Origin: Luteimonas chenhongjianii
GTDB taxonomy: Bacteria > Pseudomonadota > Gammaproteobacteria > Xanthomonadales > Xanthomonadaceae
Assembly: GCF_002327105.1 (NCBI RefSeq)
Contig: NZ_CP023406.1
Span: 2,728,001-2,792,000, forward strand
Reading direction: 5' to 3'
DNA length: 64,000 bases
Made by a program: the position numbers and the translations under genes. Below the pieces are notes generated by a model. The model made no database searches. It was given only the letters and a program-made list of their open reading frames with translations, and had not been told where the DNA came from. Positions 51,093 through 64,000 of the stretch are shown here, in pieces; position 1 is the first letter of the stretch, and every line of letters begins with the position of its first letter.

Positions 51093-51494
51093 ATGGCAAC
51101 GAAGAAGGCCTCCACCAAGAAAGTCCCGGCCAAGAAGGCTGCGCCGAAGAAGGCCGCTGCCGCCAAGCCGGCCGCACCGAAGCCGATCAAGGAAGCCCTG
51201 AGCAAGTCGGGCCTGGTCGCTCACATCGCCGAATCCACCGGTCTCGCGCCGAAGGATGTGCGCTCGGTGTTCTCCGCGCTCGAAGGCGCCGTCCACGGTT
51301 CCGTCAGCAAGAAGGGCGTCGGCTCCTTCACCCTGCCCGGCCTGCTGAAGATCACCTCGGTGAGCGTGCCGGCCAAGCCCAAGCGCAAGGGCATCAACCC
51401 CTTCACCAAGGAAGAGCAGTGGTTCGCCGCCAAGCCCGCCTCGGTCAAGGTCAAGGTGCGCCCGCTCAAGAAGCTCAAGGACGCGGCCGCCTGA
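51093..51494 (+). CDS. HU/IHF-like DNA-binding protein with lysine/alanine-rich N-terminal tail
   Basis: The 133-residue protein has a histone H1-like basic tail (about 30 residues of K/A/P: ATKKASTKKVPAKKAAPKK) followed by a diverged HU domain. That domain holds IKEALSKSGLVAHIAESTGLAPKDVRSVFSALEGAVHGSVSKKGVGSFTLPG, then a basic arm (KPKRKGINPFTKEEQWFAAKPASVKVKVRP). It should bind and compact DNA. Such extended HU proteins are known in xanthomonads. A GACGAGGG ribosome site precedes the ATG and a strong terminator follows. Confidence 0.9.
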   Translation: MATKKASTKKVPAKKAAPKKAAAAKPAAPKPIKEALSKSGLVAHIAESTGLAPKDVRSVFSALEGAVHGSVSKKGVGSFTLPGLLKITSVSVPAKPKRKGINPFTKEEQWFAAKPASVKVKVRPLKKLKDAAA

Positions 51495-54440: not shown

Positions 54441-54998
54441 ATGCGTCGTCCATACCGTTTCACCGCCATATCGCTGCTGATCCTGGCGACCGCCGCCTGC
54501 ACCTCGCTGGGCGTAGTTTCGGCCTGGCTCAACGACCAGGTCGCGTTCAGCGCCCCGCAGCTGCAACGCCAACTCGATACGCGTTTTCCCCGGACCTTCG
54601 CCACGCTTGGCGGACTGGTCCAGGTCACGCTCGACGACCCGCGGCTGTCGATCCCGCGCGGCGAGCACCGGCTGCGCCTGGATTTCGATGTCGCCATCGG
54701 CGGCCTCGCCGATGGCGGTCCCGGCCACCTTGCCCTGGCAAGCGGCCTGCGCTACGACGCGGCAACGCGCAGCCTGCACCTGCAGGATCCCGAGCTGCTC
54801 GAGTTCGATCTGCCCGGCGCCAACCGGTGGTTGAGCGGCGGTGCGCGTGGCGTGGTCAACAGCCTGCTGGCGGAATACGCGCGCAATGAGCCGGTCTACC
54901 GGCTGGACGACGATCTGCTGGCGAAGCTGCCGACAGGCAAGCACATCGGCGATGTCGAGATCATCGACGGCCGCGTGGTGGTGCGCCTTGAGCGCTGA
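54441..54998 (+). CDS. DUF1439 lipoprotein
   Basis: A 185-residue lipoprotein with lipobox LATAAC. The body follows the DUF1439 (YceB-like) pattern: FSAPQLQRQLDTRFPRTFATLGGLVQVTLDDPRLSIPRGEHRLRLDFDVAI, and near the end LPTGKHIGDVEIIDGRVVVRL. These proteins have an elongated lipid-binding-like sheet fold; the role is unknown. Its stop overlaps the TTG start of the next lipoprotein, implying coupling. Confidence 0.85.
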   Translation: MRRPYRFTAISLLILATAACTSLGVVSAWLNDQVAFSAPQLQRQLDTRFPRTFATLGGLVQVTLDDPRLSIPRGEHRLRLDFDVAIGGLADGGPGHLALASGLRYDAATRSLHLQDPELLEFDLPGANRWLSGGARGVVNSLLAEYARNEPVYRLDDDLLAKLPTGKHIGDVEIIDGRVVVRLER

Positions 54999-55692
54999 GC
55001 ACCGCAGCTTGCGTGCCCTTGCCGCGCTGGGAACCGCGCTTGCGCTCGCATGCGCGCTGGGCGGCTGCGGACGCGATGCGGCCGAGCACGAGACCGGCGC
55101 CAACAGGCAGGCCGCCGACGGATCGCTCCCACGGCCACAGCAGCCCGCCGGCAGCGTCACCGGGCTCAGCGGGGTGCAGGGCCCCGGCGACGTGCCCCTT
55201 GGCGGCGCGCAACCCGAGGCCCAAGCCGCGCCTGAGGACCCCCTGTTGCCGCTCGAGGACAATCCGGAAACCGGTCTCGCCACTGCCTCGGTCGATGAGG
55301 CGCTGGCCGCGCCGGAGCCTTCGCCGGACGAGGCCGCGGCGGTCATCCGCACTTACTACGCCGCGATCAATGCGCTCGATTATGGCCGTGCCTATGCCCT
55401 CTGGTCGGACGGCGGCCGTGCAAGCGGCCAGTCGCCCGACGGGTTCGCCGCGGGCTTCGATGGAACGTCGGTGGTCATGGTCGACATCGGCACACCCGGC
55501 GCAATCGAAAGCGCCGCCGGCTCGCGCTTCATCCGGGTCCCCGTGTCCCTGCGCGCGCAGCAGACCGACGGCAGCAGCCGCCGTTTCGAGGGCGAGTACG
55601 TGCTGCGCCGAGCGGCGGTCGATGGCGCCAGCGATGCACAGCGCACGTGGCGGATCGCCTCGGCGGACCTGCGCGAGGTTTCGACGCCCTGA
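54988..55692 (+). CDS. Lipoprotein, parent copy of the decayed repeat at 62 kb
   Basis: The 234-residue protein starts at a TTG inside the end of the DUF1439 gene and has a signal and lipobox (ALACALGGC). An acidic Pro/Ala-rich linker contains GSVTGLSGVQGPGDVPL. The C-domain from about residue 115 has EAAAVIRTYYAAINALDYGRAYALWSDGG and ends SLRAQQTDGSSRRFEGEYVLRR with a folded tail. The domain resembles small NTF2/SnoaL-type modules by pattern only. A decayed copy lies at 62186-62692, on the other side of the polysaccharide cassette. Confidence 0.75.
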   Translation: MSAEHRSLRALAALGTALALACALGGCGRDAAEHETGANRQAADGSLPRPQQPAGSVTGLSGVQGPGDVPLGGAQPEAQAAPEDPLLPLEDNPETGLATASVDEALAAPEPSPDEAAAVIRTYYAAINALDYGRAYALWSDGGRASGQSPDGFAAGFDGTSVVMVDIGTPGAIESAAGSRFIRVPVSLRAQQTDGSSRRFEGEYVLRRAAVDGASDAQRTWRIASADLREVSTP

Positions 55693-56290
55693 TGCGGAGC
55701 TCCGGCGTGGCAACGCCGGCGCCGGGTGACCCACCCCGACCTCCGAGGCGGCGGCCGAGTTCCTTGCCCGCTGGTCGGGCCGCCCGCGCGAGTTCCGCCT
55801 ACTCGTGCCAATGCGGTAAAGGCCGCACCATCAGAACTGCGGCGTGCACCCACGTGCCTCCCCGTCGCGGTAGACGCGGGGGGCGGGACGTCGCGTCCGC
55901 GCTGGACCGCCGCTTCATTGGGCTGCGGCATCGTCCCGGAGTATTTCTTCCACCACAGCGCACCCCGAAGCTTTTCCATTCTTCGGGGCGCTCGGCCAGG
56001 GTGATGCCGCAGTTGTAGGTGAGCTCCCTGCCAGCGCAATGTTGCGAGATCCCCTTGATGGACACTTGCCCCTGTAGCGCCAGCCTTTGGCGTCTTCTTC
56101 GACCATTCGCCTCGCAGTTCGGCGCGCAGCTTGGTTGGTCCAGCGTGCGACGCTGGCCTTGACGCTGGCCTTGACCCTGGCGTCGACCACGCACCCGTCG
56201 TTGAGCGAAAGCAGAGAGGTATGGCCGCCCTTGTCGACATCGGCAGCGGTGTGCTGAAAGCCTCCGGGATAGGCCATCGTATTCAGATCT
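55148..56290. repeat. Left copy of a diverged direct repeat flanking the polysaccharide cassette
   Basis: The segment carries the end of the intact lipoprotein gene and a dead SET gene. It is related over both ends to 62238-63330, including a 22-base exact match (55148-55169 with 62238-62259) and many shared blocks in the SET part such as TTGGCGTCTTCTTCGACCA and GCTCGGCCAGGGTGATGCCG. Repeat limits are estimates. Confidence 0.7.
55915..56290 (-). pseudogene. Decayed SET-domain gene, paralogue of 62995-63492
   Basis: Reading the minus strand gives YPGGFQHTAADVDKGGHTS, LLSLNDGCVVDARVKASV, ARWTNQAARRTARRMVEEDAKG and SSPTTAASPWPSAPKN. These correspond in order to YKGFLRTHDDVDEEYG, LFTLNDEYVIDANVKANV, ARWINHSCEPNCEAVVEEDAKG and the LTYNYGITLAERHTPK region of the intact SET protein. 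The catalytic NHSCEPN segment is lost by frameshifts, the N-terminus is missing, and the cysteine tail is scrambled. It cannot be functional. Confidence 0.85.
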
Positions 56291-56491: not shown

Positions 56492-57739
56492 ATGTCCAAG
56501 ATATTAGTTCTTGGCGGCGACGGTTTCTGCGGTTGGCCTACGGCACTGCATCTGTCCTACCTCGGCCATGACGTTGTGATTGTCGACAACCTCTCGCGGC
56601 GACGCATTGACGCGGAGATGGGCGCGCAAAGCCTCACCCCCATCTCGACGATCGACGTGCGGCTGAACGCATGGCGCGAGGTCAGCGGTAACGTCATTCG
56701 TTTCCAGTATGTGGATATCGCGAAAGACTATGCGCGTCTGGCTGCGCTCGTCGATACGGAACGTCCCGACGCGATCGTGCATTTTGCCGAGCAACGATCC
56801 GCTCCGTATTCGATGCGTGGGCAGGTCGAAAAGCGCTACACGATGGACAATAATGTCTGCGGTACGCACAACCTGCTGGTGGCACTCGTCGAGGCGGACC
56901 TGGACTGTCACGTGGTTCACCTCGGCACGATGGGTGTCTACGGCTACTACGGTGCCGGATTCGAGATTCCGGAAGGGTACCTCAAGGTCAAAGTTCCGGA
57001 CGACAATGGTGCCTTGATCGACCGGGAGATACTTTTCCCGACGCAGCCGGGAAGTGTTTACCACCTGACCAAGTCTGTGGACCAGCTCCTGTTCCAGTAT
57101 TACGCCCACAACGACGGCGTTCGGGTTACCGATCTTCACCAGGGGGTGGTCTGGGGAACTCAGACGCAGGAAACCCGCCTTCATCCGGCCTTGGTCAACC
57201 GCTTCGACTACGAGGGCGAGTATGGGACGGTTCTCAATCGCTTCCTTGTCCAGGCAGCGATTGGCTACCCGCTGACCGTCCACGGTACGGGCGGTCAGAC
57301 CCGCGCGTTCATCCATGTCGAAGACACGGTCCGGTGCGTCGAACTCGCAATCGCGAACCCGCCGCAACGCGGAGATCGCGTCAAGATTCTTAACCAGGCG
57401 GCGGAAACGCTGCGTGTGCGGGATCTTGCAGAGCTGGTTTCCAGGTTCACTGGGGCAGTGGTCAATTTCGTCCCGAATCCCCGCGAGGAAGCTGCCGAAA
57501 ACGACTTGCGGGTCAGCAACGCCACCTTTCGCGGGCTTGGCCTGGATCCGATCCTGCTGACCGATGCACTGCTCACCGAAACCCTCGAGATTTCGGACCG
57601 TTATGTAGACCGGGTTGATCGGAGCCAGATCCGCGCCCGCTCTGCCTGGAACAAGTCACGTCGTGCGGCGCTGGAAGAGCCTGACCGGTCGTCCCCCGCG
57701 CACGAAGCACGACCCAACGATGAAGGAGAAGGTATATGA
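56492..57739 (+). CDS. sqdB: UDP-sulfoquinovose synthase-like nucleotide-sugar enzyme (SqdB/SQD1 family)
   Basis: A 415-residue extended short-chain dehydrogenase. The NAD-binding start is ILVLGGDGFCGWPTALHLS. SQD1 hallmarks follow: VDNLSRRRID, SLTPISTID, HFAEQRSAPYSM, NNVCGTHNLLVAL, HLGTMGVYGYYG, the catalytic YHLTK (Tyr, His, Lys), DLHQGVVWGTQTQET, LNRFLVQAAIGYPLTVHG and GGQTRAFIHVEDTVRCVELAIANPP. In this family UDP-glucose and sulfite yield UDP-sulfoquinovose. No sulfolipid glycosyltransferase is present; the three overlapping downstream genes are polysaccharide-synthase-like, so the sugar may enter an exopolysaccharide (inferred). A loosely spaced AGGG precedes the ATG. Sulfonate specificity needs proof. 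Confidence 0.85.
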   Translation: MSKILVLGGDGFCGWPTALHLSYLGHDVVIVDNLSRRRIDAEMGAQSLTPISTIDVRLNAWREVSGNVIRFQYVDIAKDYARLAALVDTERPDAIVHFAEQRSAPYSMRGQVEKRYTMDNNVCGTHNLLVALVEADLDCHVVHLGTMGVYGYYGAGFEIPEGYLKVKVPDDNGALIDREILFPTQPGSVYHLTKSVDQLLFQYYAHNDGVRVTDLHQGVVWGTQTQETRLHPALVNRFDYEGEYGTVLNRFLVQAAIGYPLTVHGTGGQTRAFIHVEDTVRCVELAIANPPQRGDRVKILNQAAETLRVRDLAELVSRFTGAVVNFVPNPREEAAENDLRVSNATFRGLGLDPILLTDALLTETLEISDRYVDRVDRSQIRARSAWNKSRRAALEEPDRSSPAHEARPNDEGEGI

Positions 57740-59334
57740 GACTGTGGGTTTTGTGCCTGCTGGCACTTCTCTTCGTCGGCTTGCTCATCGCGGTGGAGCA
57801 GAGCGGGGTTTTCGATCGCGTCATGGGGCGAAACGCTCAGGTCACCGTTCCGGTGTTCGGTGACTACCAGCGCGGCTCCCTTTCATTCCAGGATGACAAC
57901 GATGGCGGGAAGGACGTATTCGTCGCGCAAGTCCATCCCGACGCACCCCTGATTCTCTCCGGATTCCCGTCCTACGCGAGCGAGCAATTCCAGTTGCCCA
58001 GCGACAGCCGGCCACTGAGCGGCACGTACAACCTCGCCTTCATGTCGGACGCGGTTCCGGGGGCCGAAGGCGCGCTGCGCGTCACCATCAACGGCATCAA
58101 GCGCGCGGACACCGTGCTCCAGCACGGGCCGGCCCGCCAACGCGTCCAGGTGGAGCTCACCCCGACCGAACTGGCGGCTGGCGAGCTCGATGTGCGGCTT
58201 GCGCTCGTCGGCCATGGACCGATGGCGGAATGCACGCCGAACGAAGCGCTGGCTGCGGTCGTCACCATCCTGCCGGAGACCGGCCTGCGACTGGCGCTCG
58301 ACAAGCCAGCCTCGACGACGGCCGACCGGCTGGCGCTCTGGGGTGACCTGATCCCGGTGAAATGGGGCGCCGACGAGAAAGCCGGCGACTCCGTCACGCT
58401 GATCACTGCGGCACGCCTCGTCCAAAGAGGCTATGGCATCTATTTCGGAGACAGCGGCTATGCCGGCCAGCAACTGGTCGACCTGGAGAAAGCCGCGGCC
58501 GGCCGTCCGTTGCGCTTGCCAGAGCTGCGCTACCCCATCAGCCTCGCCTCGGCGGGTGAGAATGCCGGGGCCCGTCGCTTCGACCGCGAGACCACCTGGC
58601 GCTACCGCTATGACGTGTCGCAGCTGCCGAACGGAGAATTGCCGTCGGCCCTTGACCTGCGCATGTTGATGGGGCCGATAGGCGAGACCCGCACCGCCTT
58701 GTTCGTCACGTTGAACGACCATCTGTTGCTCACGCGCACCCTGAGCGACGTGGACCAGCGCCTTGACACCTCGGTTGCATTGCCGGCCGCCGATCACGCC
58801 GAACGCAATGAACTGGCCATCACCTTGACGGCGCATGAGCGGGACGAGCTACGTTGCGGCTCGCGTCGCCTGATCGCAGCGGAGATGCTGCCCGACACGG
58901 TGCTCGTTGGCGGGGGTGAGCGCGTTGTTACCCCGCTTGCACAGTTGGCGGCACTGCTGCACGCCAACATGCCGGTCGCGCTCGGTAGCGGTCCGCTCAG
59001 CGCGCCGCAGGCGCAGACCTCGGCCCTGCTGCTGGGGCAGATGAACCCGACGTCGATTTCCTTCTCTCCCACACAGCCAGGTTCCACGATCGAGGTGCTG
59101 AGCGGAGACCTGTCGGCGGCGCTGGCTCAGGTTCGCCCGGCTGGACAGCAATGGCTGGTCTACTTTCCTGGCGACGAGCGCGAGGGAGCGGTCGTGGAGC
59201 GGTTCTCGCCACAGGCCGGTGCGGCCAGGGCAGCTGTCGCTCTGCTGGTGACTCTCAATCGGCCGGCCGAGGTGGCCGCGCCGGCGGCGGGTGCAACCGG
59301 CGCGCCCCGCGCCACTGCCGATGCTGCACGCTAA
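57736..59334 (+). CDS. BcsB-like periplasmic polysaccharide synthase subunit
   Basis: The 532-residue protein has one N-terminal membrane helix (LWVLCLLALLFVGLLIAV) and a large periplasmic part. BcsB-like elements include PLSGTYNLAFMSDAVPGAEGALRVTINGIK (jelly-roll), LFVTLNDHLLLTRTL, and NELAITLTAHERDELRCGSRRLIAAEML. Unlike E. coli BcsB it has no visible C-terminal anchor; it ends in an Ala/Pro-rich tail. BcsB guides cellulose out of BcsA, and the same role is likely for the glycan made by the next gene. A GAAGGAGAAGGT ribosome site and ATGA overlap couple it to sqdB. Confidence 0.75.
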   Translation: MRLWVLCLLALLFVGLLIAVEQSGVFDRVMGRNAQVTVPVFGDYQRGSLSFQDDNDGGKDVFVAQVHPDAPLILSGFPSYASEQFQLPSDSRPLSGTYNLAFMSDAVPGAEGALRVTINGIKRADTVLQHGPARQRVQVELTPTELAAGELDVRLALVGHGPMAECTPNEALAAVVTILPETGLRLALDKPASTTADRLALWGDLIPVKWGADEKAGDSVTLITAARLVQRGYGIYFGDSGYAGQQLVDLEKAAAGRPLRLPELRYPISLASAGENAGARRFDRETTWRYRYDVSQLPNGELPSALDLRMLMGPIGETRTALFVTLNDHLLLTRTLSDVDQRLDTSVALPAADHAERNELAITLTAHERDELRCGSRRLIAAEMLPDTVLVGGGERVVTPLAQLAALLHANMPVALGSGPLSAPQAQTSALLLGQMNPTSISFSPTQPGSTIEVLSGDLSAALAQVRPAGQQWLVYFPGDEREGAVVERFSPQAGAARAAVALLVTLNRPAEVAAPAAGATGAPRATADAAR

Positions 59335-61181
59335 TGCTTCCTCCGGAGTCCGACCGTCGGCGAGCCACTTTCGGATCGGCCGACAGCTTGGCCGGCGGTC
59401 TGGCGTCTCCAGTGGCGCTGTCGCGCGCGCCAGCGCTCCTGCTGACCTTTGCCATCCTTGCGCTGCTTCAACTGTGGGTGTTCGAGCTTGGTCATCTCGA
59501 TCACATCTTCTACGCCCACGATTATGTGCTTGGGCCGTACGTCGGGTTCAGCGCGGTCTCGATCCGCACCTTCATGCTGTCCTTCTTCGTCGCATTCTCG
59601 ATTTACGCGGCAGGAACGGCTCGGGCACGGATCCTGTTCTGTCTCGATGTATGCCTGCGCTATATCGCCTTGTGTCTCATCCTCGACATGGGAAGCATCG
59701 CCCTGTTCGCCTACACGGGGTCGCCGTTCCCCCTGCTCGCGATCCAGGTCATGGCCGGTTTCGCCGGCTTCGCGGTATTCGCTTTTGTCATCATCCGGCG
59801 TGGCGCCATGCCTTCACCTGTTCCGGTCGTGCGCGGGCATCAGCCCAACACCCGGACGTTCTGGCGCTTGGGACTGACCGGGGCGGTGGCTACGATCGTA
59901 TCGACATGGGCTGCATTGACGCCCAACCCGCTGTTTGACGAACTGCGCAGGATCACCCTGCTCGGCGGCATCGGCCCCGGGATCATCCTGCTCCTGCTGG
60001 TGTGGTTCGCCCAGCTTTACGTGATTGCAATCTTCGAGCGGAATCGCCACTTGCGTCGCGATTTCAGGCCGCCGATTTCGATCATCGTGCCGGCGCATAA
60101 CGAGGAGTACGTGATCGGCCAGACGATCCAGTACATCGATCGTGCCGCGGCCTATTACGGGCAACCGGTCGAAGTGATCGTCATCGACAACGGATCGCAG
60201 GACGCGACGGCGGAGATCGCGCGGGCCACGATCCAAACCTGCCGGGCGATCCAAGGCGCGGTCCTTCATGTCGGCACCCCGGGAAAGGCGCACGCCCTGA
60301 ACGAAGGGGTCATGCGGGCCAGCTACGACTTCATTGTCCGGATCGACGCGGACACCCATGTCCGCGAGGACAACCTTGCGCTCGCGATGCAGAATTTCGC
60401 CGATCCGAGCGTCGGCGCGGTCGGCGGAGTTCCCCTGCCACCGGGCGGCGGAATCTTCGATCCGGGTCGCCGGGTCGAGGTGATCGTCAAGCACGGCTTT
60501 TATTCTCCCGCACTCAGCGCAGCGTCCGGCCTGGTCGGGATCCCCGGCATGTTCGTCGTCTATCGCGCGGAAGCAGTGCGCTCGGTCGGGCAGTTCGCAT
60601 CTGGCATGAACGGTGAGGACACCGACTTCTCCCTGCGGATCGCGGAACTCGGATATCGCACGCTGGTCGACCAGCGCATCGGCTATGTGTCGGAGGTGCC
60701 GACCAGCTTCGCCCACCTTCGCGAGCAACGGTTGCGCTGGTTCCGGTCGGTGTATCACGTCAGCGCTCGTGCGCACTCGCTGATCAGTTCCTCCAACTTC
60801 AGCGTTCGCGGGAAGCTGGTACTCCCGTACATGCTGCTGAACACCTCGCGTCGGGCCATGATGATGCCGCTGGTCGCATTCGGTGTTCTGGAGCTCCTGA
60901 TCACGTCGGCGTCGGTGGCGCTCCCGCACTGGCAGGCAATCGTGGCCGTGCTGATCGGCTCTCCAATGCTGGCGGCGGCCCTTGCGATCCTGGCGAATAA
61001 TCGTCCGCGGGCACTGCTTTCGCTGCCGGCGTACGTCCTCTTCCGCGCACTGCGTTCGTGGTACACGCTGGAATCGGCGCTCAGCATTCCGATCATGTCG
61101 ACCTCGACGCGGATCCAGATCGGCCGTGACCCCTGGCCGCAAAGCCCGCCACCGAACCCGCGTCCCGAGGAGGCCGCATGA
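59334..61181 (+). CDS. Processive family 2 glycosyltransferase, polysaccharide synthase (BcsA-like)
   Basis: The 615-residue inner-membrane protein has about six helices before and three after a GT-A domain. Catalytic motifs are SIIVPAHNEEYVIG, VIVIDNGSQDATAE, VRIDADTHV (the DxD-type site), MNGEDTDFSLRIAELGY (the general base) and EQRLRWFRSVYHV (QxxRW, the processive marker). No PilZ domain follows, so direct cyclic-di-GMP activation as in BcsA is not apparent. It should polymerise a nucleotide sugar and push the chain to the periplasm. TAATG overlap with the bcsB-like stop and ATGA overlap with the barrel gene show strict coupling. Confidence 0.88.
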   Translation: MLPPESDRRRATFGSADSLAGGLASPVALSRAPALLLTFAILALLQLWVFELGHLDHIFYAHDYVLGPYVGFSAVSIRTFMLSFFVAFSIYAAGTARARILFCLDVCLRYIALCLILDMGSIALFAYTGSPFPLLAIQVMAGFAGFAVFAFVIIRRGAMPSPVPVVRGHQPNTRTFWRLGLTGAVATIVSTWAALTPNPLFDELRRITLLGGIGPGIILLLLVWFAQLYVIAIFERNRHLRRDFRPPISIIVPAHNEEYVIGQTIQYIDRAAAYYGQPVEVIVIDNGSQDATAEIARATIQTCRAIQGAVLHVGTPGKAHALNEGVMRASYDFIVRIDADTHVREDNLALAMQNFADPSVGAVGGVPLPPGGGIFDPGRRVEVIVKHGFYSPALSAASGLVGIPGMFVVYRAEAVRSVGQFASGMNGEDTDFSLRIAELGYRTLVDQRIGYVSEVPTSFAHLREQRLRWFRSVYHVSARAHSLISSSNFSVRGKLVLPYMLLNTSRRAMMMPLVAFGVLELLITSASVALPHWQAIVAVLIGSPMLAAALAILANNRPRALLSLPAYVLFRALRSWYTLESALSIPIMSTSTRIQIGRDPWPQSPPPNPRPEEAA

Positions 61182-62074
61182 AAAGGATCGCGCTCGCGGC
61201 GACTCTCGCCTCTGCAGTGGCGCTGCAATCTGCCTGGGCTCAGGAGGACCGCGTTTGGGTCGACGGCGAGCTGTCCTACGGCCTTGACGTGGTGCCACCG
61301 GATGTCGTCGACACTTCACCGGAGCAGGATCGCATCCGATCTGGCTTCGATGGGGAGATCGGCGTGAACTACGACCTCGGGCCCGCGATCGTGCGCGCAT
61401 CGGCCGGGGCCCGCATCTTCCCCTCGGAGTCGGATTACAACCGCTACCCGCTTGCCATCGCGGCCCGCTACGACGTGCCGCTGACCTCTGACAACAGGAC
61501 CAGGCTGCGATTTCAGCCGAGCTACGAATATGTGTTCGGAAATGATGGGCGGGTATTCGATCGGCCGCGGCTGGATACGCAACTCATCCACCGCCACAAT
61601 CCGGAGCACACCACGACGCTGCGTTTGCGTTACGGCTATCGCAACCAGACCGAGCGACGCTTCAGCGGATACGACCAGAGCGAGTGGCTGGGTGAAGTTC
61701 GCCACTTCTGGCGTCCCAACGGCGGCCCCACGAGGATCACGGGTTCGCTCCTGGGCCTGCGCGCGGATGCCGACGACGATCGTTTCAGCTACAACGGCTA
61801 TGGCGCCCAGCTGATCGCGCGCACCGACCTGCGTGACGATCTGCAAGCCTATGGTCGCGTCTACTTCGCGCATCGGGACTACAAAGCCCCGTTCTCATCC
61901 CTCTATCCGTACGATCGCAGCGACAACACATTGCGCGTCACCGCCGGTCTCGAGAAGCGACTGAACGAGCGCTTCAGTCTTTTTGGCGAGGCTGGATACG
62001 CCCGGAACAACTCGAACGTGCCGACGCGCCAGTACGACGGGTTCGTCGGGCGCATCGGCATCATCCTGCGCTAG
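61178..62074 (+). CDS. Outer-membrane beta-barrel, probable glycan exporter
   Basis: A 298-residue protein with a signal peptide (MKRIALAATLASAVALQSAWA) and alternating amphipathic strands throughout, such as LRLRYGYRNQTERRFSGYDQSEWLGEVRHFW and LQAYGRVYFAHRDYKAPF, ending in FVGRIGIILR. The predicted fold is a barrel of perhaps 12-14 strands. No named family was recognised. Position last in the synthase operon suggests that it plays the export-pore role of BcsC or AlgE, without the TPR scaffold. It overlaps the glycosyltransferase gene by four bases. Confidence 0.7.
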   Translation: MKRIALAATLASAVALQSAWAQEDRVWVDGELSYGLDVVPPDVVDTSPEQDRIRSGFDGEIGVNYDLGPAIVRASAGARIFPSESDYNRYPLAIAARYDVPLTSDNRTRLRFQPSYEYVFGNDGRVFDRPRLDTQLIHRHNPEHTTTLRLRYGYRNQTERRFSGYDQSEWLGEVRHFWRPNGGPTRITGSLLGLRADADDDRFSYNGYGAQLIARTDLRDDLQAYGRVYFAHRDYKAPFSSLYPYDRSDNTLRVTAGLEKRLNERFSLFGEAGYARNNSNVPTRQYDGFVGRIGIILR

Positions 62075-62185: not shown

Positions 62186-62692
62186 GTGCCGGAGGGCGCG
62201 CGTATCCGGAACGCGGTTCCCGCCAGCAGTAGTGTGCCCGGCAGCGTCACCGGGCTCAGGGACGTAAGCGACCTGGCAACGGGCCCTAGCGGCAAGCCGC
62301 CTGTACCCGCGGAACCTGCCGACACCCCGCTGCCGCTGGAGGTCATCCGACAACAGGAGTCACCGCAGCATTGGGCGGTCCTGCTCTGGCTGCGCGCGAG
62401 CCACCGGGGACGCCGCGGCGGCAATCCGCACCCACCACGGGCGCTCAACGCGCTCGACTTCAGCCGCGCCCACGGTCTTTGGCCGAAAGGCGGCCCGCGA
62501 GCGACCAGTCCCCCGATCTGCTCGCGCCGGCTTCGGCGGGACGTCGGTCGTGATCATCGACATCGCCGCCACGCGGCTCTGTATCGACGCCGCCGCCAGC
62601 GCGTTGCAGACCCGGTCTCGCTGCGCACGCAACAGAAAGACGGAAGCAGCCGACGTTTCGAAGGCCATGATGATCTGCGCCCCCCGCAATAG
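62186..62692 (+). pseudogene. Decayed copy of the 54988-55692 lipoprotein gene
   Basis: Fragments in shifting frames match the intact lipoprotein in order: PGSVTGLRDVSDLATG, ADTPLPLEV, ALNALDFSRAHGLW, then after a frame change a segment like VVMVDIG, and SLRTQQKDGSSRRFEGHDDL. The signal peptide and lipobox are gone. It pairs with the intact SET gene downstream as the right flank of the duplication. Confidence 0.75.
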
Positions 62693-63330
62693 CCGACGGC
62701 GCCAGCGAGGTGCAGCGCGTGTTGCCCTCACCGATCGGCGGGCTGTTGTCTTCGCTCCCCGATCGAGGGCGCCCGAGCCCGCACAGCCTGGGAATACAGG
62801 GGACCCGCCGGCGGGGCGCGCCTGAGACGTGAGGCAAGAAGTTGTGGTCCCGCGGAGAAGCAGGCGACCGCGCTGACGCGCAATTCCCGTAGTGCACCTG
62901 TACTTACGCCACCATCGGCACCCGCCGATGGCCCTCGCTTCTTCGGGCCCGAGGGGGCTCGCGGATGCTCCCGCGATGCGGAAGACGCTTTACTTCACTT
63001 CTTGGGCTGCAGCATCGTCCCGGTGCATGTCTTCGAACCACAGCGGCAGCCCCAGAGCTTCTTCAGTTTCGGGGTATGACGCTCGGCCAGGGTGATGCCG
63101 TAGTTGTAGGTCAGCTCCTCGCCGGGCGCGATGTCTCGGATCGCCTCGATGAACACCTTGTCCCTGTCGCGCCGGCCCTTGGCGTCTTCTTCGACCACCG
63201 CCTCGCAGTTCGGCTCGCAGCTGTGGTTGATCCAGCGCGCGACGTTGGCCTTGACGTTGGCGTCGATCACGTACTCGTCGTTGAGCGTGAACAGAAAGGT
63301 GTGCCCGTCCTCGTCGACATCGCCATATTC
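62238..63330. repeat. Right copy of the diverged direct repeat flanking the polysaccharide cassette
   Basis: This copy carries the dead lipoprotein gene and the intact SET gene, in the same order and orientation as 55148-56290. The two copies have decayed in complementary ways. Between the genes (62700-62990) similarity is weak and no gene is seen. Confidence 0.7.
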
Positions 63331-63492
63331 CTCGTCGACATCGTCATGGGTGCGCAGGAAGCCCTTGTAGCGGATGATCCGCTCGCCCTTGGCGAAGGCT
63401 CCCGTCGCAAACACACCATTGCCATGGATGCTGGAGAGGCGCGCCTCGATCTTCTTCGGCGGCTTGGACTTGGACTTGGACTTGTTCGGCAT
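62995..63492 (-). CDS. SET-domain protein-lysine methyltransferase
   Basis: The 165-residue protein starts with a basic K/S/P tail (MPNKSKSKSKPPKK). A SET domain follows: SSIHGNGVFATGAFAKGERIIRYKG, the cofactor/substrate motif ARWINHSCEPNCEA, GEELTYNYG with the catalytic tyrosine, and a post-SET zinc cysteine cluster CRCGSKTCTGTM. All core residues are present, so it should be an active SAM-dependent lysine methyltransferase. Targets in bacteria are poorly known; the HU-like or ribosomal proteins are only possible candidates. A dead paralogue lies at 55915-56290. Confidence 0.9.
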   Translation of the reverse strand: MPNKSKSKSKPPKKIEARLSSIHGNGVFATGAFAKGERIIRYKGFLRTHDDVDEEYGDVDEDGHTFLFTLNDEYVIDANVKANVARWINHSCEPNCEAVVEEDAKGRRDRDKVFIEAIRDIAPGEELTYNYGITLAERHTPKLKKLWGCRCGSKTCTGTMLQPKK

Positions 63493-63585
63493 CGCAGGAT
63501 CCGCGTCAGGGTTGCGGCGCATTGTGGACAACATCGCCACGGCCCGCCACTGCGCCACGTGCTGAACACCTGCAAGGCCGCTGCG

Positions 63586-63614
63586 TTGAGCGGGGCGCCG
63601 CAAAAGCGTACAAT
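63586..63614 (+). promoter_or_regulatory. Sigma-70-type promoter of the Rrf2 regulator gene
   Basis: TTGAGC at 63586-63591 and TACAAT at 63609-63614 are separated by exactly 17 bases and lie about 40 bases before the GTG start. It is the best-formed promoter seen in the window. Rrf2-type regulators often control their own promoter, so an operator may overlap it. Confidence 0.7.
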
Positions 63615-63655
63615 TTTGGTCCGCTTTGATCCGCCACCGGTCGCCTCCCCTCATC

Positions 63656-64000
63656 GTGCTTCGCGTCACCAAACTCACCGACTACGCAACCGTCGTACTG
63701 ACCGTGCTCGCCGCCCGCCCGCAGGCGGTGATGAGTGCGACCGAGCTTGCCGAACATTCGGGACTCGAGGCGCCGACGGTCAGCAAGCTGCTCAAACCGC
63801 TGGCACAAGCCGGCCTGGTCGAGGGCTTCCGCGGCGCCACCGGCGGTTACCGGCTCGCCCGCGATGCCGCCCGCATCACGCTCGTCGAGATCGTCGAGGC
63901 CATGGAAGGGCCACTGGCGATCACCGAGTGCAGCCTCCACGACGGCCATTGCGGCATTTCCGAGCAGTGCGGCGTCAGCGGCAACTGGCGACGCATCAAC
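63656..64000 (+). CDS. Rrf2-family regulator of the SUF iron-sulfur system (partial)
   Basis: The GTG at 63656 opens MLRVTKLTDYATVVLTVLAARPQAVMSATELAEHSGLEAPTVSKLLKPLAQAGLVEGFRGATGGYRLARDA, an Rrf2 winged helix. Cluster-binding cysteines follow in ECSLHDGHCGISEQCGVSGNWR. It matches the SUF-type regulator of xanthomonads and probably precedes suf genes beyond the window. About 115 residues are visible and the end is cut off. It probably senses Fe-S status through its three cysteines. Confidence 0.92.
   Translation, partial: MLRVTKLTDYATVVLTVLAARPQAVMSATELAEHSGLEAPTVSKLLKPLAQAGLVEGFRGATGGYRLARDAARITLVEIVEAMEGPLAITECSLHDGHCGISEQCGVSGNWRRIN

What the first reader, a model, noticed from the sequence alone, without database searches (positions are those of the whole stretch)
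56492..62074. Compact exopolysaccharide synthase operon with its own UDP-sulfoquinovose synthase-like enzyme
Seen: four genes overlapping by 1-4 bases. They encode an SQD1/SqdB-like enzyme with the Tyr-His-Lys and EQRSAPYSM hallmarks, a BcsB-like protein, a BcsA-like GT2 without PilZ, and an outer-membrane barrel. Known: SqdB makes UDP-sulfoquinovose, usually for sulfolipid with a dedicated glycosyltransferase; BcsA/BcsB/BcsC export cellulose. Inference: the operon makes and exports a glycan containing a sulfonated sugar, using a minimal envelope-spanning machine. I know of no named system with this gene set.
Basis: partly seen in the sequence, partly recalled or inferred. Interest (0 to 1): 0.88.

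Follow-up and report, generated by a model that had tools for sequence, protein, structure and literature searches.

The report
Sulfonated-sugar polysaccharide synthase operon
A compact four-gene bacterial operon, kept in related form in two orders of alphaproteobacteria, appears to make a sulfur-bearing activated sugar and feed it to a cellulose-synthase-like machine, which would mean a secreted polysaccharide built with a sulfonated sugar.

Summary
Four same-strand genes at 56492-62074, overlapping by 4, 1 and 4 bases, encode a UDP-sulfoquinovose (UDP-SQ) synthase-like enzyme, a BcsB-fold periplasmic protein, a membrane GT2 of processive type without PilZ, and a small outer-membrane-barrel candidate.

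The enzyme has the UDP-SQ synthase fingerprint TMG...YHLTK and the five residues found essential in Agl3. Its clade, distinct from plant SQD1, includes two loci in sqdBDC-like order and one ORF joining it to a PAPS reductase, a sulfite-making enzyme. Against: it misses the NCBIfam cut-off and has Val where Agl3 has Glu147.

The gene set is a real system. All ten Sphingomonadales loci found by BcsB keep the order as far as their contigs reach. In a Rhodobacterales family, 15 of 335 genomes carry this GT2; all 15 have this SQD type beside it or one gene away, and 13 have the BcsB. In the window genome the operon looks horizontally acquired, lying inside a duplicated flank.

Most likely it makes and exports a sulfoquinovose-containing exopolysaccharide. 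The polymer chemistry is inferred. Ten full-text searches of an open-licence library found no such system described.

The parts
56492..57739 (+). SQD1/SqdB-like UDP-sulfoquinovose synthase candidate (SQD)
   Evidence: NF041015 327.7 bits, below cut-off 575; PDB SQD1 E 7e-100; fingerprint TMG...Yx3K and the Agl3-essential residues H, R, M, Y, K present, Val at the Glu147 position
57736..59334 (+). BcsB-like periplasmic co-polymerase candidate, N-terminal membrane anchor, no C-terminal anchor found
59334..61181 (+). membrane-embedded GT2 polysaccharide synthase candidate, no PilZ domain found
   Evidence: Pfam GT2; model pLDDT 84.4, pTM 0.85; matches a mannosyltransferase, hyaluronan synthase, BcsA and chitin synthase; DAD, GED and QRxRW residues invariant in 54 of 54 rows
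61178..62074 (+). outer-membrane beta-barrel candidate (secretion pore), 298 aa, no TPR match
   Evidence: weak matches OMP_b-brl, BBP2_2, Autotransporter, all below cut-off and EpsL TIGR03014; a homologue follows the GT2 in the 8 of 10 sphingomonad loci whose contigs reach it and in L102
54994..55689 (+). intact lipoprotein-like gene (by eye; no Pfam match), left copy of the duplicated flank
   Evidence: homologue beside SET in 19 of 29 genus loci
55913..56245 (-). degraded remnant of the SET-domain gene, left copy
   Evidence: 79.7% DNA identity to 62998-63325
62238..62718 (+). degraded remnant of the lipoprotein-like gene, right copy
   Evidence: 69.7% DNA identity to 55148-55644
62998..63678 (-). 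intact SET-domain gene, right copy of the flank
   Evidence: PF00856 91 bits; found in 50 of 52 genus genomes

Best explanation
The operon is a dedicated synthase-dependent exopolysaccharide system built on a sulfonated sugar. [quoted passage not shown] The GT2 takes UDP-sulfoquinovose as a donor, alone or alternating with a second UDP-sugar, polymerises it at the inner membrane and threads the chain outwards (fold and catalytic residues shown, donor inferred). The BcsB-like protein, anchored by its N terminus, receives the chain in the periplasm (fold predicted, role inferred). The small barrel lets it out (inferred). The product would be a strongly acidic sulfonate polysaccharide. Lacking PilZ, the synthase is not gated by c-di-GMP in the way BcsA is (inferred). 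In the window genome the operon was probably acquired from a sphingomonad-type source and sits in a duplicated flank.
For: SQD fingerprint and essential residues. Window-type SQD clade supported 100/100 and holding two sqdB-GT8-epimerase (sqdBDC-like) loci; in R. sphaeroides deletion of sqdB of the sqdBDC operon abolishes the sulfolipid (PMC11346425 passages). PAPS-reductase domain and SQD in one ORF in a same-family genome. Ten of ten sphingomonad loci keep SQD-BcsB-GT2(-OMP) as far as the contigs reach. 15 of 15 loci of a Rhodobacterales family found by GT2 alone have window-type SQD beside the GT2 or one gene away. Distance matrices of the four proteins correlate, r 0.65-0.95, each Mantel p 0.0005 from 2000 permutations; shared ancestry alone could also give this. 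GT2 and BcsB models match cellulose and hyaluronan synthases and BcsB. A GH10 gene with intact-looking catalytic motifs is divergently encoded upstream of SQD at 5 of 10 sphingomonad loci. The genome has a PAPS reductase gene 16.7 kb away, a possible source of sulfite.
Against: No biochemical evidence for the enzyme, the donor or the polymer. NF041015 cut-off missed (327.7 against 575). Agl3 Glu147 is replaced by Val, and Agl3 E147A kept only 12.4% activity. Two close sphingomonad relatives (L041, L042) have Thr or Ala at the Met essential in Agl3, and one operon SQD (L160) has Gln at the essential His. The SQD type is also used without this GT2: of the 13 window-type SQD loci of the class survey, the GT2 is on the fetched stretch in only 2, so SQD alone does not define the product. 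The OMP homologue is found in only 2 of the 15 Rhodobacterales loci and BcsB is missing beside the GT2 in two, L101 and L163. Whole-chain TM scores to known synthases and BcsB are modest (about 0.34-0.45). Nothing in the GT2 sequence was shown to select UDP-SQ. Sulfoquinovosyl transferases elsewhere in this genome were not searched for.
Confidence: 0.6

Rival explanations
1. The enzyme makes UDP-SQ, but the GT2 builds the main chain from another sugar such as UDP-Glc or UDP-GlcNAc; SQ is added as a side group or used elsewhere.
For: The GT2's best NCBIfam match is PNAG synthase (99.4 bits, far below cut-off) and its fold matches synthases for glucose, GlcNAc and GlcA; UDP-Glc and UDP-GlcNAc are general metabolites, so no precursor gene would be needed.
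Against: Only one glycosyltransferase is in the operon, so a side group would need a second one from outside; the GT2 was never found without SQD beside it or one gene away in the loci examined.
Confidence: 0.22
2. The SQD-like enzyme is not a UDP-SQ synthase. It makes another UDP-sugar, such as UDP-glucose-5,6-ene or a 6-substituted sugar with a nucleophile other than sulfite, which the GT2 uses.
For: Below the NCBIfam cut-off; Val in place of Agl3 Glu147; of 120 listed proteins (the window's own among them) 116 could be read at Met145 and 4 of these lack Met; the clade is on a long branch from SQD1 (2.46). Agl3 without sulfite makes the 5,6-ene (abstract).
Against: The five residues essential in Agl3 are kept in the window. 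The same subfamily sits in sqdBDC-like order and in one ORF with a PAPS reductase.
Confidence: 0.12
3. The product is not a long polymer: the GT2 transfers SQ once to a lipid or periplasmic acceptor, and BcsB and the barrel carry a glycolipid or oligosaccharide.
Against: QRxRW and further membrane helices are as in processive synthases; the PcManGT match starts only at model residue 219, several hyaluronan synthase rows at 73; BcsB-fold partners are known to me only from cellulose-type synthases (recalled).
Confidence: 0.05
4. The four genes are neighbours by chance or decayed cargo and do not work together.
For: The operon lies inside a duplicated, partly decayed flank.
Against: All four frames are intact with overlapping junctions, and the SQD-GT2 neighbourhood is kept in 25 other loci (10, 15).
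Confidence: 0.01

Closest known systems
Bacterial cellulose synthase complex BcsA-BcsB-BcsC
   Same: Membrane GT2 with DAD, GED and QRxRW residues next to a BcsB-fold periplasmic protein and an outer-membrane candidate; in half the sphingomonad loci a glycanase gene (GH10) is near, as BcsZ (GH8, recalled) is in cellulose operons
   Different: No PilZ domain, BcsB with an N-terminal segment only, small barrel candidate without TPR match instead of BcsC, and a sugar-nucleotide gene that cellulose operons lack (recalled)
Rhodobacter sphaeroides sqdBDC sulfolipid operon
   Same: Window-type SQD heads two loci with sqdBDC-like gene order (L098, L100)
   Different: There the partners attach SQ to diacylglycerol (PMC11346425 passages); here they are a polymer synthase, BcsB and a barrel candidate. 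The R. sphaeroides SqdB sequence itself was not compared
Agl3 of Sulfolobus acidocaldarius
   Same: UDP-SQ synthase serving a glycan rather than a lipid; the five essential residues shared
   Different: N-glycans of an archaeon, not a synthase-dependent polysaccharide; Agl3 has Glu147, the window enzyme Val
Hyaluronan and alginate synthase systems (gene pairings recalled)
   Different: Carboxylate sugars and no BcsB partner (recalled); here a sulfonate sugar is predicted

Membership tests
UDP-sulfoquinovose synthase (SQD1/SqdB/Agl3) | Fingerprint [ST]MGxnYx3K (PMC8987622 Table 1) | tested here: met
   TMG and YHLTK in the window protein
UDP-sulfoquinovose synthase (SQD1/SqdB/Agl3) | Agl3 residues whose Ala mutants were inactive: H95, R101, M145, Y182, K186 | tested here: met
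   All five in the window protein
UDP-sulfoquinovose synthase (SQD1/SqdB/Agl3) | Glu at Agl3 position 147 (E147A retains 12.4% activity) | tested here: not met
   Val in the window and in all 38 window-type SQDs counted, including the two sqdBDC-like loci
UDP-sulfoquinovose synthase (NCBIfam equivalog NF041015) | Score over the curated cut-off 575 bits | tested here: not met
   327.7 bits. None of 240 class genomes passes either; of the two control genomes that match (Synechococcus elongatus, Sulfolobus acidocaldarius) one passes
UDP-sulfoquinovose synthase (SQD1/SqdB/Agl3) | Forms UDP-SQ from UDP-Glc and sulfite | not testable with these tools
   needs an enzyme assay
Cellulose synthase (Bcs) operon | GT2 with DxD, GED/TED and QxxRW residues in a membrane-embedded fold | tested here: met
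Cellulose synthase (Bcs) operon | C-terminal PilZ domain in BcsA | tested here: not met
   no PilZ match; the protein ends 32 residues after the last long helix
Cellulose synthase (Bcs) operon | BcsB fold | tested here: met
Cellulose synthase (Bcs) operon | C-terminal membrane anchor of BcsB (recalled) | tested here: not met
   hydropathy finds only an N-terminal segment in the window protein; of 7 relatives checked one (L043) also has a C-terminal hydrophobic stretch
Cellulose synthase (Bcs) operon | BcsC with TPR repeats and large barrel (recalled) | tested here: not met
   298-aa protein, no TPR match
PNAG synthase PgaC/IcaA (TIGR03937) | Score over cut-off 422.3 bits | tested here: not met
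   99.4 bits, best NCBIfam match of the GT2
sqdBDC sulfolipid operon | SqdD-type GT8 beside the SQD gene | tested here: not met
   no GT8 match in the four operon proteins; the rest of the genome was not searched for GT8

The most novel reading that the evidence does not exclude
The GT2 uses UDP-sulfoquinovose as its only donor and extrudes a homopolymer of sulfoquinovose: a polysulfonate analogue of cellulose, one sulfonate per residue, made by a mobile operon, with GH10 enzymes in some sphingomonads adapted to trim it.
Probability: 0.3. Interest if true: 0.92.

Novelty: new variant of a known kind. Interest (0 to 1): 0.8.

Why it matters
In the reviews whose passages or abstract starts I saw, sulfoquinovose is a sulfolipid head group and part of archaeal N-glycans (PMC12890257; PMC9594981). 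A bacterial secreted polysaccharide built on it would be a new biological form of this abundant organosulfur sugar, a possible further source for sulfoquinovose-degrading bacteria, and a biosynthetic route to permanently charged anionic polymers whose sulfur is carbon-bound and so not open to sulfatases (inference). It would also extend the BcsA-BcsB architecture to a sulfonated donor, which makes donor selectivity in this synthase family directly testable.

Tried and rejected
Rejected: ordinary epimerase or dehydratase (profile scores and fingerprint); ordinary cellulose operon (no PilZ, no BcsC-like protein); a cognate GH10 in the window genome (its two GH10s are 24-29% identical to the sphingomonad ones and 82 kb away); plasmid carriage (the BcsB-like protein has no match in the plasmid collection at E 1e-5; records of or near this genome may be left out there). 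The alphaproteobacterial cellulose operons without BcsC in PMC7112194 (passages) are described there as including known cellulose producers; its main text has no hit for 'sulfo' or 'epimerase'. I could not tell from the passages whether any of those loci overlaps with this system.

Led nowhere: BcsB against PDB sequences (one chance match); own-genome PF03170 search (0 matches although hmmscan of the ORF scores 35 bits), so absences by that tool are not conclusive for BcsB. Eight weak BcsB-profile matches (20-27 bits, partial) in one other family of the phylum were not followed. PMC9549778, PMC11806900, PMC13372026 and PMC12628687 (passages) gave nothing on such a system.

Literature: ten searches pairing sulfoquinovose, UDP-sulfoquinovose synthase or sqdB with exopolysaccharide, capsular polysaccharide, glycosyltransferase, BcsB, cellulose synthase, polymer, Rhodobacter or O-antigen, and one on synthase-dependent systems with BcsB. 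None of the listed titles and abstract starts describes such a system; several lists were cut (for example 20 of 734, 12 of 23, 25 of 174), and subscription journals and preprints are mostly not held.

Full report
What is there. Four intact genes run on the + strand from 56492 to 62074 with overlaps of 4, 1 and 4 bases. The GT2 most likely starts at the ATG at 59334, inside the TAATG junction; a longer frame from 59151 overlaps the BcsB gene by 184 bases and was not preferred. The operon has 63.7% GC and its first gene 59.7%, against 68.1% for the rest of the window.

The SQD enzyme. It scores 327.7 bits against the NCBIfam UDP-SQ synthase model, below the curated cut-off of 575, and matches the Arabidopsis SQD1 structure sequence nearly end to end at E 7e-100. 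The next NCBIfam and PDB families score at most 49 bits; the broad Pfam superfamily models Epimerase and GDP_Man_Dehyd score 88.4 and 59.8. PMC8987622 (passages) gives UDP-SQ synthases the fingerprint [ST]MGxnYx3K, while its listed 4,6-dehydratases have [ST]DE, [ST]DK or [ST]SE; the window has TMG and YHLTK. PMC4388408 (abstract, sections 5, 6 and 11) reports Agl3 H95A, R101A, M145A, Y182A and K186A as inactive, and E147A at 12.4% activity. The window has all five essential residues and Val at 147; the same Val is in all 38 window-type SQDs counted by group. Against the reading: L041 and L042, close relatives, have Thr and Ala at the Met, and L160 has Gln at the His. Among the 120 listed proteins (the first is the window's own), 112 have Met, 3 Thr, 1 Ala, and 4 did not fit the search pattern; two have Gly instead of Val at 147.

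Which subfamily. In 240 genomes of the class of G321, 22 have a match at E 1e-50: 9 at 421-541 bits and 13 at 327-353 bits, the window type. A tree of 57 rows separates the window type from SQD1 and the 9 canonical enzymes (100/100; midpoint root for drawing only, no epimerase outgroup) and nests the window protein among sphingomonad operon enzymes (99/99 with Sphingomonas L041 and L042 and two proteins of unnamed origin). Two window-type loci are followed by a GT8 gene and an epimerase-like gene: in L098 both by Pfam, in L100 the GT8 by Pfam and the third gene by eye. This is like the order of the R. sphaeroides sqdBDC operon, where deletion of sqdB abolishes the sulfolipid (PMC11346425, passages). 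The R. sphaeroides SqdB sequence itself was not obtained, so its place in this clade is inferred. In a genome of the window's own taxonomic family, G095, one ORF carries a PAPS-reductase domain followed by SQD. An internal ATG exists, so a fusion protein is likely but not shown. Together these favour a sulfite-using enzyme.

Conservation. A scan of genome contigs with the BcsB alignment found 10 loci, all with record titles of Sphingomonadales genera (order checked for three names). In all 10 the order is SQD, BcsB, GT2, and OMP follows in the 8 whose contigs reach it (L042 and L049 end early). The GT2 profile matched 2 of 367 genomes of that class at E 1e-90, G321 and G263, and 15 of 335 genomes of the family of G263 at E 1e-120. 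Around all 15, fetched with 6.1 to 19.9 kb each, a window-type SQD at 59-67% identity lies beside the GT2 or one gene away; 13 have BcsB-like proteins; the exceptions are L101 and L163. In L167 and L168 the SQD is convergent. A profile search finds the OMP in only 2 of the 15. This set was found by GT2 alone, so the link to SQD is independent of how it was found. Distance matrices correlate at 0.65-0.95 across the proteins (n 11-24), which shared ancestry alone could also give. The reverse does not hold: of the 13 window-type SQD loci the GT2 lies on the fetched stretch in 2 (6.3 to 19.9 kb each), and several others lie in other polysaccharide-like clusters or alone (by eye). G1008 has OMP, SQD and a divergent BcsB without GT2 on its short contig.

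Neighbours. A GH10 gene with intact-looking WDxxNE and TE(L/F)D motifs is divergently encoded upstream of SQD in 5 of 10 sphingomonad loci; in L044 a gap of 1.6 kb lies between, and L041 has only 320 bases upstream, so it could not show one. In L045 and L046 an S41 peptidase-type gene lies there instead. GH10 enzymes cleave beta-1,4 chains (recalled), which hints at a beta-1,4 backbone. The window genome has no cognate GH10. Its single PAPS reductase match lies 16.7 kb downstream.

How it got here. Of 198 genomes sampled from the family only the window genome and G095 have a full-length strong SQD match. The operon lies between two copies of a lipoprotein-like gene and SET gene pair: the left copy keeps the lipoprotein-like gene and a SET remnant, the right copy a lipoprotein-like remnant and the intact SET. 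SET is in 50 of 52 genus genomes; loci were returned for the best 29 other genomes, and the two genes are neighbours in 19 of these 29, which is the likely empty site. The SET remnant is 79.7% identical to the own SET over 344 columns and at most 75.2% (246 columns) to any of the 29 relatives, while the lipoprotein-like remnant is 69.7% identical to the own gene over 502 columns and up to 74.5% (321 columns) to relatives. Internal duplication and import with a relative's flank therefore cannot be told apart. Acquisition from a sphingomonad-type source fits the tree, GC and distribution; the two nearest proteins in the tree are of unnamed origin, so the immediate donor is open.

Verdict. The gene set and its conservation are shown and the folds are predicted with fair to good confidence. 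UDP-SQ formation, the donor of the GT2 and the sulfonated product are inferred. Best reading: a dedicated sulfoquinovose exopolysaccharide synthase, 0.6. Boldest reading not excluded, a part of the former: a sulfoquinovose homopolymer, 0.3.

Noticed in passing
L012 580-2709 (G095:C13): PAPS-reductase domain and SQD in one open frame, near flippase- and tyrosine-kinase-like polysaccharide genes (the latter two by eye, recalled); an apparent fusion of sulfite-making and sulfite-using enzymes.
   Followed up: partly
L041 and L042, SQD gene: Thr and Ala replace the Met that is essential in Agl3, in sphingomonad SQDs close to the window's; either the residue is less critical in this clade or these copies differ in activity.
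   Followed up: partly
54994-56245 and 62238-63678: Complementary decay of a duplicated lipoprotein-like/SET pair on the two sides of the operon, a record of how the operon was inserted.
   Followed up: yes
51093-51494: 133-aa HU-like DNA-binding protein (by eye, recalled) with a Lys/Ala/Pro-rich N-terminal tail resembling histone H1 tails.
   Followed up: no
G1008 contig C18 (L113): OMP, SQD and a divergent BcsB-like 659-aa protein in a row, with no GT2 found on the contig: perhaps a more distant variant of the system.
   Followed up: partly
L045 6152-8443 and the matching L046 gene (6096-8393): In two Erythrobacter loci an S41 peptidase-type gene (Pfam in L045; L046 by similarity), not GH10, lies divergently next to the SQD gene.
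   Followed up: no
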